DNA of 64,000 nt from Streptomyces sp. JB150 (lineage in GTDB: Bacteria; Actinomycetota; Actinomycetes; Streptomycetales; Streptomycetaceae), in contig NZ_CP049780.1 of NCBI RefSeq assembly GCF_011193355.1, positions 1,595,582 through 1,659,581 on the forward strand, written 5' to 3'. Both the position numbers and the translations under genes were made by a program. The notes under the pieces were generated by a model. It was not told the origin of the DNA. It did no database searches and saw nothing but the letters and a program-made list of their open reading frames with translations. Below, one piece after another: positions 12,195 through 16,329 of the stretch. Every line of letters starts with the position of its first letter. Positions within the stretch are counted from its first letter, which is position 1.

Positions 12195-12198
<4 letters not shown>
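11527..12198 (-). CDS. YhhN family membrane protein (lysoplasmalogenase-like)
   Basis: This 223-aa protein has 7-8 predicted transmembrane helices and belongs to the YhhN/TMEM86 family. Characterised members hydrolyse the vinyl-ether bond of lysoplasmalogens. Conserved family features are the acidic residues in the GWGGDVLLL and FVLSDTLIA helices. The ATG (12198) overlaps the stop of the fatty-acid hydroxylase gene by 4 bp, so the two proteins are coupled. Activity on vinyl-ether lipids is inferred from the family. Confidence 0.85.
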
Positions 12199-13145
<947 letters not shown>

Positions 13146-13151
13146 TCCTGC

Positions 13152-13180
13152 ACCGTAGGACCGCGGTACGGCGGGGTCCA
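13152..13180 (-). promoter_or_regulatory. Promoter for a leaderless hydroxylase-yhhN operon
   Basis: On the minus strand, TGGACC (13180-13175) and TACGGT (13157-13152) are separated by 17 bp, and the ATG begins 6 nt after the -10 box. This is the standard geometry of leaderless actinobacterial transcripts. Confidence 0.55.
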
Positions 13181-13187
13181 GACGTTG

Positions 13188-13213
13188 TTACCGATAAGTA
13201 TTACCAGCGGTAA
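13188..13213. promoter_or_regulatory. Inverted repeat TTACCG-N14-CGGTAA
   Basis: TTACCG (13188-13193) and CGGTAA (13208-13213) flank an AT-rich core, just upstream of the hydroxylase promoter and about 95 bp before the decayed NLR gene. It could be a TetR/PadR-type operator; no regulator gene is adjacent. Confidence 0.4.
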
Positions 13214-13306
13214 GCGCTTGTTTGTTGGCGATCTCCGCCAATGGCGCCACGCGCGCGTGCCTACGATTTCCTGCGCCGAGGGGGAACGGGGGCGGAGCCG
13301 GGGAGC

Positions 13307-15236
13307 ATGCAGGGGCTGGAGACGGTGCTGGTCCGGCTGGCCGCGACGGTGGCTTCGTCGCTGGTGAAACCGGTCGTGAAATCCATGGTGCAGCCGGGCA
13401 CGGGCGCGGGCCTGGTGGCGGACCCGGTACGGCCGCTGCCGAAGCCCGCGCCACCGGAGAAACTGGCCCGCGTGCTGTCCGCGCGGATCGCTCACGCCCA
13501 CGCGTGACTGCCGGAGCACGAGCGGCTGGCGGCCGTCGCGGCCGTCCAGGACGCCTTCGCGGCGGCGGCACCGCTCGACGCCGACCGGCTCTTCACCGCC
13601 GACCTGGACCCCGCGCGACTGGCGCGCGAGATCCGGCGGCCCGTGCCGGACCTCGCGGAACGGGAGATCGCCGCGGTCGAGGGCGTCGCCCTCTCGCGCG
13701 AGGAGCAGACCGCGCTGCTGCAGCGGCTGGCGTACTGGATGATCCGCAACGCCCAGGTCCAGGCCGAGCGGGACGAGGTCGTCGCCATGCTCGACGAGTG
13801 GCTGGCCGCGATGCCGCAGGTGCGCCGGCAGGGCGACGCCGAGCAGGTCTTCACGCATCTGCTGATCCCCAGCGGCCTGCGGCGGGAGCCGGTGCCCGGA
13901 TACGTGGACTTCGTGCACCGCACCTTCCAGGACCACCTCGGTGCCAAGGCGGCCGTGGAGTCACGGGATTTCGGGGTGCTGGCCCGCAACGCCCACGACG
14001 ACCAGTGGGACGACGTGGTGCGGATGGCGGTGGGGCACGCGCGCGTGGCGGAACGCGGGCGCCTGCTGCGGCAGTTGCTGCGCCGCGCGGACCGGGTCAA
14101 ACGGCACCGGGAGCGGCTGGTGCTGCTGGCGGCGGCCTGCCTGGAGCACGCGCCCGAACTGGACCCCGAGGTGCGCGCGGAGGTGGAACGGCGGACCGGC
14201 GAGCTGGTGCCGCCGAAAAGCGCGCGGCAGGCCGAGTCGCTGGCCAAGGCCGGGGAACTGGTGGTGGAACTGCTGCCGGGGCCGGACGGGCTGAGCGACG
14301 AGGAGGCCGCGGCCGTGATCCGCACGGCGCGGCTGGTCGGGGGTGACGCCGCGTTGCGGGTGATCGCCCGGTTCCGCGGCGACCAGCGTCCGCGCATCCG
14401 CGCGGAGTGGGGCTGGGCCTGGTCGTCGTTCGATGCGGCCGAGTACTTCGAGAAGGTGCTCCGCGGGCAGGTCCGGCCCGATCACACGGTGCTCTTCGAG
14501 ACCGCCGAACAGCTGGCGTACCGGCCCCGGCTGCCGGAACTGACGAGCGCCCAGGTGGCGGGCGACCACGGCATCCCGGAGGCCGTCCTGGAACACACCC
14601 GCTGACGTTCCTCCAGTCGTCGACAACCCCTCGCTCGCCGATCTGTCGCCCCTGCGCCGGCTGCCCCGCCTCGAGAGCCTCGGACTCCTCTCCTGCCGCA
14701 CCGTGCGCGACCTCGGCTCGACGGCCGGGCTGCCCGTGCGCAAGCTCTTTTCCTCAACCTGACGCCCGCGCGGCTGTCATTGGCACCGCTCGGCGACATG
14801 CCCGCCCTGCGGCACCTGGTGTTCGACTTCACGCCGGCGGAGAAGAGCCTGGCGGAGCTTCCCTTCGCGACGCGGCTCACCGGTCTCGGCTTCTTCCGCG
14901 CCGCCGCGGCCATGAAGCTGACGGGTCTGGAGGCGCTGCGCGAGCTGGAGTGGCTGACCGTCAACGAGGACCACCAGTGGCTCGACTTCCTGGCCGCCGG
15001 CGCGTTCGCGCCGCTGAGGACGCTTCAAGTCCTGGACGTCCGTTATGTCGACCTCGCCCGCATCGTGCCGCACCAGGACCTCGAATACCTGTATGTCGGC
15101 AAGGCGGACCGCGTGGGCAACGTCGCCGCCCTGGCCGAGCTGCCCCTGCTGCGAAAGGTGCACTTCTCCCGCTGCGGCAGCCTCGACGCCGCCCCCCCTC
15201 ATCGCCCTGGAACACCTCACCGTCTCCGTCGACTGA
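13307..15236 (+). pseudogene. Degenerate NACHT-LRR (NLR-like STAND NTPase) gene
   Basis: The frame starts at MQGLETVLVRL and reads as the N-terminal region of Streptomyces NACHT proteins until an in-frame TGA (13505-13507). The same frame continues (LPEHERLAAV) but jumps near 13628-13645 straight to the post-NACHT helical region (SREEQTALLQRLAYW, VDFVHRTFQDHL). The whole ATPase core with its Walker A and B motifs is absent. Leucine-rich repeats follow (NPSLADLSPLRRLPRLESL; LGDMPALRHLVFDF) but only by changing frame near 14602, 14616 and 14748-14751. A 7-C run (15192-15198) then shifts frame again before EHLTVSVD-stop at 15236. Intact relatives are much longer, about 900 aa or more by recollection. 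It is inactive as sequenced. Confidence 0.88.
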
Positions 15237-15330
15237 CCTTCGCGCACACGCGTACGACCCCCGAACGGGCAGGCCTGCCACGGCACCTGAGGGAGGGCGC
15301 TGTCAGTCCCGGGCCGTATCCTCGGTGACC

Positions 15331-16329
15331 ATGCTCGAAGACCACACGACCGCAGCGTCCTCCGCCACGACGTGGCCGGCCGCGTATCCGCACGGATACG
15401 CGGTCGTTGACGTGGAGACCACCGGCCTGGCCCGCGACGACCGGATAATCTCCGCGGCCGTCTACCGGCTGGACGCGCGCGGCGAGGTCGAGGACCACTG
15501 GTACACGCTGGTCAACCCGGAGCGCGACCCCGGCCCCGTGTGGATCCACGGTCTGACGAGCGAGGCCCTGGAGGGCGCGCCGCTCTTCGCGGACATCGCC
15601 GAGGAGTTCGCGACCCGCCTGGAGGGCCGGGTGCTGGTCGCGCACAACGCGGTCTTCGACTGGCAGATGATCGCCCGGGAGTACGCGCGGGCGCGGCGCG
15701 AGCCGCCGGTACGGCAGCGGCTGTGCACCATCGCGCTGTCCAAGGCGCTCGACCTGCCGCTGCCGAACCACAAGCTGGAGTCGCTGGCGGCGCACTTCGG
15801 CGTGGTCCAGCGGCGCGCGCACCACGCGCTGGACGACGCGCGGGTACTGGCCGAGGCGTTCCGGCCGAGCCTGCACGCCGCGGCCCGGGGCGGCCTGCGG
15901 CTGCCGCTGCACGAGTGCCGGCCGCTGACCGAGTGGACGGACCGGCCCGTGCCGCGCATCGGACAGCAGGCGGGCGGCCCGGGCGGCTACGGACACCGGG
16001 CGACCGGCTGGCGGCCCGCCAGGAAGCGGCCCGCGTGCCCGTACCCCAACCCCGGCCGGTACGAAGAGGGCAAAAGGCTCAAACAGGGCATGCGGGTGGC
16101 GTTCTCCGGCGACACCTCGGTGGAGCGGGAGCTGCTGGAGGACCGCGCGGTCGAGGCCGGCCTGCACGTGGCGACCAGCCTGTCCCGGCTGACCAGCCTG
16201 CTCGTCACCAACGACCCGGACTCGGGCACGTCGAAGGTGCTCAAGGCGCGGCAGTACGGCACACCCGTGGTCGACGAGGCCGCGTTCGGCCAGCTGCTGG
16301 CAGATGTGGAACCGGCCTCGGAGCAGTGA
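15331..16329 (+). CDS. DEDDh 3'-5' exonuclease with BRCT domain
   Basis: This 332-aa protein has an N-terminal DnaQ-like exonuclease domain (about 20-175) with VVDVETTG (D27, E29), HNAVFDW (D110) and HHALDDA (H164, D169). After a linker, a C-terminal BRCT domain lies at about 250-328 (RVAFSGDTSVERELLEDRAV, LVTNDPDSGTSKVLKA). It resembles the epsilon-like exonuclease/BRCT proteins of actinobacteria, probably acting in DNA repair. The ATG at 15331 or the in-frame GTG at 15325 may start it; TATCCT (15316-15321) suggests a very short or absent leader. Confidence 0.9.
   Translation: MLEDHTTAASSATTWPAAYPHGYAVVDVETTGLARDDRIISAAVYRLDARGEVEDHWYTLVNPERDPGPVWIHGLTSEALEGAPLFADIAEEFATRLEGRVLVAHNAVFDWQMIAREYARARREPPVRQRLCTIALSKALDLPLPNHKLESLAAHFGVVQRRAHHALDDARVLAEAFRPSLHAAARGGLRLPLHECRPLTEWTDRPVPRIGQQAGGPGGYGHRATGWRPARKRPACPYPNPGRYEEGKRLKQGMRVAFSGDTSVERELLEDRAVEAGLHVATSLSRLTSLLVTNDPDSGTSKVLKARQYGTPVVDEAAFGQLLADVEPASEQ

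What the first reader, a model, noticed from the sequence alone, without database searches (positions are those of the whole stretch)
13307..15236. NLR-like NACHT-LRR gene that has lost its entire ATPase core
Seen: the N-terminal NACHT-protein segment and the post-NACHT/LRR segments are present, but the P-loop ATPase between them is missing at about 13630. There is also an in-frame TGA (13505) and frame changes near 14602, 14616, 14750 and in a 7-C run (15192). Known: bacterial NACHT/NLR-like STAND proteins are immune-type genes subject to rapid gain and loss. Inference: this is a decayed defence-type gene whose internal deletion removed the switch domain first. An alternative is that the clustered single-base changes are partly assembly errors.
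Basis: partly seen in the sequence, partly recalled or inferred. Interest (0 to 1): 0.72.

Follow-up and report, generated by a model that had tools for sequence, protein, structure and literature searches.

The report
Freshly broken bacterial NLR immune gene
A Streptomyces-like chromosome carries a recently broken copy of a bacterial NLR-type (NACHT plus leucine-rich repeat) sensor gene whose ATP-driven switch has been cut out; intact copies sit at the same place in many related species while a close sister lacks the gene, so this is an ordinary but well-caught step in the decay of a likely defence gene.

Summary
Window 13307-15236 is one former gene, homologous along its length to ~1,030-aa NNH1-NACHT-LRR proteins. 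At about 13656-13662 an in-frame ~1.1-kb stretch is missing (residues ~114-490 of the S. resistomycificus orthologue): the last third of NNH1, the whole NACHT P-loop domain and ~75 residues beyond. An in-frame TGA (13505) and at least three frame breaks in the LRR half are added. The nearest genes on both sides are uninterrupted, so general assembly error is unlikely. Many Streptomyces carry an intact gene at the same place, upstream of a DEDDh exonuclease gene. Among 139 relatives' stretches: 20 full-length, 4 remnants, 101 absent, 14 undetermined; the nearest sister lacks the gene. dN/dS of the remaining segments is like that of intact genes, so breakage is recent. Short direct matches at the deletion ends in some relatives hint at a short-repeat deletion. 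'Switch lost first' is untestable. Verdict: young pseudogene of a known kind at a locus of patchy presence. Side lead: two singleton open-frame proteins elsewhere also lack NACHT by internal deletion.

The parts
13307..13504 (+). N-terminal part of the former gene (start ATG 13307), homologous to the beginning of NNH1-NACHT-LRR proteins
   Evidence: tblastn of intact relatives; coding-interval scan
13505..13507 (+). in-frame TGA stop inside the N-terminal domain
   Evidence: sequence; the relatives shown have a residue here
13508..13655 (+). rest of the retained NNH1 part
   Evidence: Pfam NNH1 E 4e-10
13656..13662 (+). deletion junction; about 1.1 kb (residues ~114-490 of the L045 orthologue, including the NACHT domain) is missing; short direct match between the two deletion ends in some relatives
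13658..14602 (+). post-NACHT region, open frame (listed in a protein database as a 320-aa protein, P0001, from 13643)
   Evidence: 50-74% identity (best segment) in the 59 loci
14602..14757 (+). first LRR part, out of the original frame (switches at ~14602-14616 and ~14715-14757)
14757..15196 (+). main LRR part, back in the original frame
   Evidence: LRR_14 E 0.0096, below Pfam cut-off
15192..15198 (+). 7-C run with the last frame switch
15199..15236 (+). last residues of the former gene and its stop, in a different frame
12195..13145 (-). intact divergent neighbour used as a syntenic marker; called sterol-desaturase-like here by my own reading of its translation (recalled), NCBIfam gives only a weak OlsE match below cut-off
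15331..16329 (+). intact downstream neighbour, DEDDh family exonuclease (NF004719, 480.7 bits, cut-off 389); syntenic marker

Best explanation
This is a young pseudogene. The lineage carried a working NNH1-NACHT-LRR gene (a bacterial NLR, probably a single-gene sensor-switch-effector protein) between a sterol-desaturase-like gene and a DEDDh exonuclease gene. Recently a ~1.1-kb in-frame deletion, possibly by recombination or slippage between short direct repeats, took out the end of NNH1 and the whole NACHT switch; a nonsense codon and several frame breaks also accumulated, in unknown order. Without the nucleotide-driven switch, and with the frame broken, the locus should not make the sensor. 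Shown: homology, deletion, stop, frame breaks, full-length orthologues in place, absence in the sister. Inferred: short-repeat mechanism, defence role, loss of all function.
For: Full-length orthologues with NNH1, NACHT (L045 E 2.7e-25) and LRR matches; P-loop in 56 of 59 relatives' frames; the missing length is a multiple of three against all seven relatives and 38 of the 54 copies that could be measured out of 79 tried (the 54 include some genomes twice); TGA and frame switches; nearest coding intervals on both sides uninterrupted; 40 of 59 named-collection loci have the sterol-desaturase-like neighbour and 47 of 59 at least one of six markers in the stretch; sister G017 matches window 13101-13259 at 93% and 15297-15400 at 92% with only 44 nt between; dN/dS of the three remaining segments (0.32, 0.39, 0.40) lies within the range of 12 intact genes; 6, 7 and 9 nt same-register match at both breakpoints in L043, L078 and L057.
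Against: No reads were available, so single one-base breaks (notably the 7-C run) may be errors. A 320-aa open frame (13643-14605) survives and is listed as a protein (P0001), so some product cannot be excluded. dN/dS gives no clear sign of lost constraint: within range, just above the eight nearest intact copies (0.35 against 0.13-0.34). 16 of 54 copies give a length that is not a multiple of three; in all 16 the left alignment ends at 13649 or earlier, so the measure is rough. Matches of 5-6 nt also occur away from the junction in some rows (e.g. L056), and no control was run for the short-repeat idea.
Confidence: 0.9

Rival explanations
1. The in-frame deletion created a shortened, still-made protein without ATPase (or the surviving 320-aa post-NACHT frame is a new gene), kept because it does something, for instance interfering with full-length paralogues.
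For: Deletion is in frame; the frame 13643-14605 is open; two open-frame proteins from other species also lack NACHT by internal deletion: P0065 (residues 1-98 joined to 655-1033) and P0071 (about the first 75 residues joined to 703-1037); the genome keeps two NACHT paralogues with open frames.
Against: TGA at 13505 and at least three frame breaks; P0065 and P0071 are singletons (1 member sequence, 1 contig each), and at E <= 1e-100 P0065 matched 1 of 392 genomes, in a 1,074-aa frame (only up to 4 candidates per genome were scored); the post-NACHT segment is no more constrained than in intact genes.
Confidence: 0.05
2. Mainly an assembly or sequencing artefact: the real gene is intact.
For: Two of the frame breaks lie at short homopolymers (T run near 14750, 7-C run 15192-15198).
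Against: A ~1.1-kb deletion and a nonsense codon are not typical errors; nearest flanking coding intervals uninterrupted; single-contig genome, 98.8% complete; broken copies at this locus also occur in other genomes.
Confidence: 0.03
3. Not loss of an old resident but a recently acquired copy that broke on or after arrival (this is compatible with the pseudogene verdict and differs only in history).
For: Sister G017 has no gene at the site; presence is patchy on the exonuclease tree: 25 changes, at least 13 forced by well-supported branches, and such counts cannot tell gain from loss.
Against: Same place and orientation in many species; distances of the NACHT gene and of its neighbours correlate (Mantel r 0.55, 58 rows, and 0.54, 36 rows; 0 of 999 permutations as high; some genomes are in these sets twice, which helps the correlation).
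Confidence: 0.15

Closest known systems
NNH1-NACHT-LRR proteins of Streptomyces (S. resistomycificus L045, S. tailanensis L038, Streptomyces sp. G44 L039)
   Same: Homologous along the length; L045 has the same neighbours on both sides, L038 the same neighbours except that no sterol-desaturase-like match was found, L039 had none of the six markers in its stretch
   Different: They have a full open frame with a P-loop (GPAGSGKS or GAAGSGKS); the window copy lacks residues ~114-490 and is frame-broken
Bacterial NACHT antiphage proteins (bNACHT; e.g. bNACHT25, PMC12169576, start of abstract and passages seen)
   Same: Tripartite plan: N-terminal effector, central NACHT module, C-terminal sensor; bacterial NACHT proteins with LRRs are called bona fide bacterial NLRs there
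   Different: bNACHT25 has a nuclease effector and an NCH1 domain; on the orthologues L045 and L039 PADLOC gives only a weak P-loop match (mad8, E 0.0019 and 0.0006) and NCBIfam nothing near a cut-off (antiphage_EruA 18.9 bits against 1000 on L045); antiphage activity of this Streptomyces group is untested
P0065 (S. yangpuensis, 482 aa) and P0071 (Streptomyces sp. NPDC048445, 408 aa)
   Same: Internal deletion joining a stub of NNH1 to the post-NACHT/LRR half, NACHT gone
   Different: Open frame as listed; different right breakpoints (655 and 703 against 491); genomic place not checked

Membership tests
NACHT-family STAND proteins with LRRs (bacterial NLR) | NACHT NTPase domain with Walker A (P-loop) | tested here: not met
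   No NACHT match in any of the five window pieces scanned; the deletion spans it. The intact orthologues L038, L039, L045 do meet it
NACHT-family STAND proteins with LRRs (bacterial NLR) | N-terminal NNH1 domain | tested here: met
   Partial: Pfam NNH1 40.5 bits over cut-off 27 for profile positions 73-126 of 177; the last third is deleted
NACHT-family STAND proteins with LRRs (bacterial NLR) | C-terminal leucine-rich repeats | tested here: inconclusive
   Window pieces score below Pfam cut-offs (LRR_4 E 0.017, LRR_14 E 0.0096) but align to the LRR half of relatives that pass LRR_4
NACHT-family STAND proteins with LRRs (bacterial NLR) | Antiphage activity | not testable with these tools
   No experiment possible; weak PADLOC matches only
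Pseudogene | Interrupted frame relative to intact orthologues | tested here: met
   TGA 13505, in-frame deletion at ~13656, at least three frame breaks
Pseudogene | Loss of purifying selection | tested here: inconclusive
   dN/dS within the range of intact genes in all three segments, slightly above the eight nearest in the post-NACHT segment; if a pseudogene, a recent one
Pseudogene | Absence of a functional product | not testable with these tools
   No expression data

The most novel reading that the evidence does not exclude
In this NLR family the ATPase is repeatedly excised by in-frame deletion with the left end in NNH1 (residues ~75-114), leaving NNH1-stub plus sensor proteins that are made for a time and act as decoys or dampeners of full-length paralogues; the window copy is one such form, now decayed further.
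Probability: 0.04. Interest if true: 0.6.

Novelty: new member of a known kind. Interest (0 to 1): 0.22.

Why it matters
It shows a bacterial NLR gene caught between working and gone, at a fixed chromosomal place where full-length, broken and absent alleles coexist in one genus. That makes a natural series for asking what it costs to keep an NLR and whether loss follows phage pressure. By itself it is an ordinary pseudogene. The faster amino-acid change of the LRR half in intact copies fits a sensor in an arms race and is the more useful lead.

Tried and rejected
Rejected or not supported: (1) general assembly error (broken copies elsewhere). (2) A conserved family of ATPase-less derivatives: a search whose length limits exclude full-length relatives gave 71 proteins, the window's own P0001 included (7,997 candidates scored of more); by mapping to intact references they are mainly C-terminal, N-terminal or NACHT-bearing fragments, many on short contigs; only P0065, P0071 and, partly, P0059 look like internal deletions, each a singleton; P0065 found no like form in 392 genomes at E <= 1e-100, with at most 4 candidates scored per genome. 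(3) 'ATPase lost first': of six other broken copies at this locus (L095, L096, L171, L242, L251, L277) what survives differs; L095 and L096 keep a piece around the P-loop, so no order follows. L058 is also frame-broken, but none of the markers lies in its stretch. (4) Selection for the 320-aa remnant: no extra constraint.

Led nowhere or flawed: my exonuclease and small-protein queries were translated in a wrong frame (positions usable, identities not); corrected. In one search hits to residues 1-67 of the L045 frame were intergenic; references were trimmed. The right-hand anchoring failed and its lengths are not used; one search replaces it. One search (DNA search of 392 genomes) gave many weak matches. 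Literature searches: going by the listed titles and abstract starts, none is about decay of Streptomyces NACHT-LRR genes; the library is open-licence papers only, and the 2023 Cell paper on bacterial NLRs (recalled) is not held. Among the 20 full-length survey copies, L263 lies on the far side of the sterol-desaturase-like gene, and L212 and L216 show one stop codon in the aligned stretch. Sixteen or so survey stretches were cut short by contig ends. I did not check whether other closely spaced coding intervals elsewhere in the window are broken genes.

Full report
What is there. The window is part of a 7.32-Mb single-contig genome (G000, 98.8% complete), unnamed; 56 of the 59 best-matching named loci are titled Streptomyces, so I take it to be Streptomyces. 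Between 13307 and 15236 lies one former gene on the + strand. Its first part (13307-13655) carries an in-frame TGA at 13505; the second (13656-14602) is open; the third (14602-15236) changes frame at about 14602-14616, between 14715 and 14757, and at 15190-15196. Pfam finds NNH1 in the second frame (E 4e-10) and only sub-threshold LRR matches in the rest.

What is missing. The 15 intact reference relatives are 989-1,039 aa from the conserved start. In the S. resistomycificus copy (L045) NNH1 is at 9-164, NACHT at 254-414 and LRR matches at 812-879 and 965-1007. From the DNA alignments, the window's left homology to L045 ends at about residue 114 and its right homology begins at residue 491, so the last third of NNH1, the linker, the whole NACHT domain and ~75 residues after it are gone (1,131 nt against L045). 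Of 79 relatives' copies tried, 54 could be measured on both sides (some genomes appear twice): the missing length is 1,014-1,179 nt and a multiple of three in 38 of 54, including all seven; in the other 16 the left alignment ends at 13649 or earlier. At the junction (13656-13662) some relatives show the same letters at both ends in the same register: 6 nt in L043, 7 nt in L078, 9 nt in L057, 4-6 nt in several more, nothing notable in many; runs of 5-6 nt also occur away from the junction in some rows. This fits a deletion between short direct repeats but was not tested against chance.

Is it real? In a codon-usage scan of the window the four nearest coding intervals on the left (from 9112) and five on the right (to 20240) are uninterrupted, while this gene falls into three. 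A 1.1-kb deletion plus a nonsense codon is not an error pattern of homopolymers; single breaks may still be errors, and no reads were available.

Orthologues at the same place. Of 59 loci from the named genome collection, 56 have a P-loop motif in the open frame that holds the match; 40 of 59 have the sterol-desaturase-like gene and 47 of 59 at least one of six neighbour markers in the fetched stretch. The DEDDh exonuclease was found in 142 of 150 sampled genomes of the genus, the window's own included. I fetched the stretch upstream of it for 139 of the other 141 (two left out at contig edges). Result: 20 full-length copies (L212 and L216 with one stop codon in the alignment; L263 on the far side of the sterol-desaturase-like gene), 4 remnants, and 115 without a hit, of which 14 lacked any upstream marker and are undetermined, leaving 101 absent. 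Among the 48 stretches with exonuclease identity of at least 85% to the window there is no full copy: 42 absent, 1 remnant, 5 undetermined. Several named relatives at 86-89% exonuclease identity (L040, L042, L044, L045, L052, L057, L078) do have intact copies. So intact, broken and absent alleles coexist among near relatives.

The sister. On a 156-row exonuclease tree (FastTree; 35 full, 6 remnant including the window, 101 absent, 14 undetermined) the window pairs with G017 (support 99); presence against absence changes 25 times, at least 13 forced by well-supported branches, and the six remnants need six separate changes, as many as shuffled labels would. G017 matches the window at 13101-13259 (93%) and 15297-15400 (92%) with only 44 nt between, so it lacks the whole gene. 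The tree cannot tell gain from loss. The correlation of NACHT-gene and neighbour distances (Mantel r 0.55 with 58 rows, 0.54 with 36 rows; 0 of 999 permutations as high; some genomes are in twice) and the fixed place favour old residence with repeated loss, but transfer together with the flanks is not excluded. A review-type analysis of bacterial conflict systems names gene loss and strong presence/absence differences between close relatives as hallmarks (PMC7159879, passages seen).

Age. With 12 intact relatives for comparison, the terminal-branch dN/dS of the window copy is 0.32 (N-terminal), 0.39 (post-NACHT) and 0.40 (LRR), inside the range of the intact copies in each segment (0.16-0.45, 0.18-0.41, 0.36-0.84), and third-position G+C is 0.91-0.94. 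In an earlier set, against the eight nearest copies, the post-NACHT value was the highest of nine (0.35 against 0.13-0.34). The gene was therefore under near-normal constraint for most of its separate history and broke recently. For the same reason the lesions cannot be ordered, so the claim that the switch went first is untested.

Other broken copies. L251 (G005) keeps only residues 487-570 with two stops between its neighbours; L242 keeps residues 1-192; L277 keeps 788-1036; L171 keeps 98-174; L096 and L095 keep a part around the P-loop, with deletions after it. No common order is visible.

How it would have worked. Bacterial NACHT proteins are described as a C-terminal sensor, a central NACHT module for oligomerisation and signal transduction, and an N-terminal effector, and those with LRRs as bona fide bacterial NLRs (PMC12169576; start of abstract and passages seen). 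By analogy the intact orthologue would sense a phage or damage cue with its LRRs, oligomerise through NACHT, and act through NNH1, whose action is unknown. In all 12 intact copies compared the LRR segment has the highest dN/dS of the three (0.36-0.84 against 0.16-0.45), as expected of a sensor. Defence activity of this group is not tested; PADLOC and NCBIfam give only weak matches and the six solved-structure matches are LRR-only (internalins and YopM fusions). The genome keeps two other NACHT genes with open frames and P-loops (51% and 33% identical in the shared region), so it has not lost this kind of protein.

Verdict. A young pseudogene of a known kind, with orthologues in place, at a locus of patchy presence. 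The only unusual angle is that two open-frame singletons from other species (P0065, P0071) also lost NACHT by internal deletion with the left end in NNH1; that is worth a survey, not a claim.

Noticed in passing
proteins P0065 (S. yangpuensis) and P0071 (Streptomyces sp. NPDC048445): Open-frame NNH1-stub plus LRR-half proteins without NACHT, apparently by internal deletion in the same family; singletons.
   Followed up: partly
13146-13306: The spacer between the sterol-desaturase-like gene and the broken gene is conserved in many relatives, also in ones without the NACHT gene (93% in the sister over 13101-13259), suggesting a promoter or operator of the divergent gene.
   Followed up: no
intact orthologues (12 of L038-L078), LRR segment aligned to window 14759-15187: LRR half shows about twice the dN/dS of the rest of the gene in intact copies.
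   Followed up: partly
L242 5961-7367 (-), genome G075: At the same locus an open frame of 468 aa has a near-complete NNH1 (profile 2-175 of 177) followed by ~275 aa without Pfam match; possibly a fusion or an overlapping non-coding frame.
   Followed up: partly
L263 (genome G058): Full-length NACHT homologue (52%) on the far side of the sterol-desaturase-like gene instead of between it and the exonuclease.
   Followed up: no
L135 5042-8362 (-) and L136 5365-8697 (-), window's own genome: Two NACHT paralogues with open frames and P-loops (GVAGSGKT, GEAGSGKT); the first lies beside a ClpC-like frame (my reading of the translation, not searched).
   Followed up: partly
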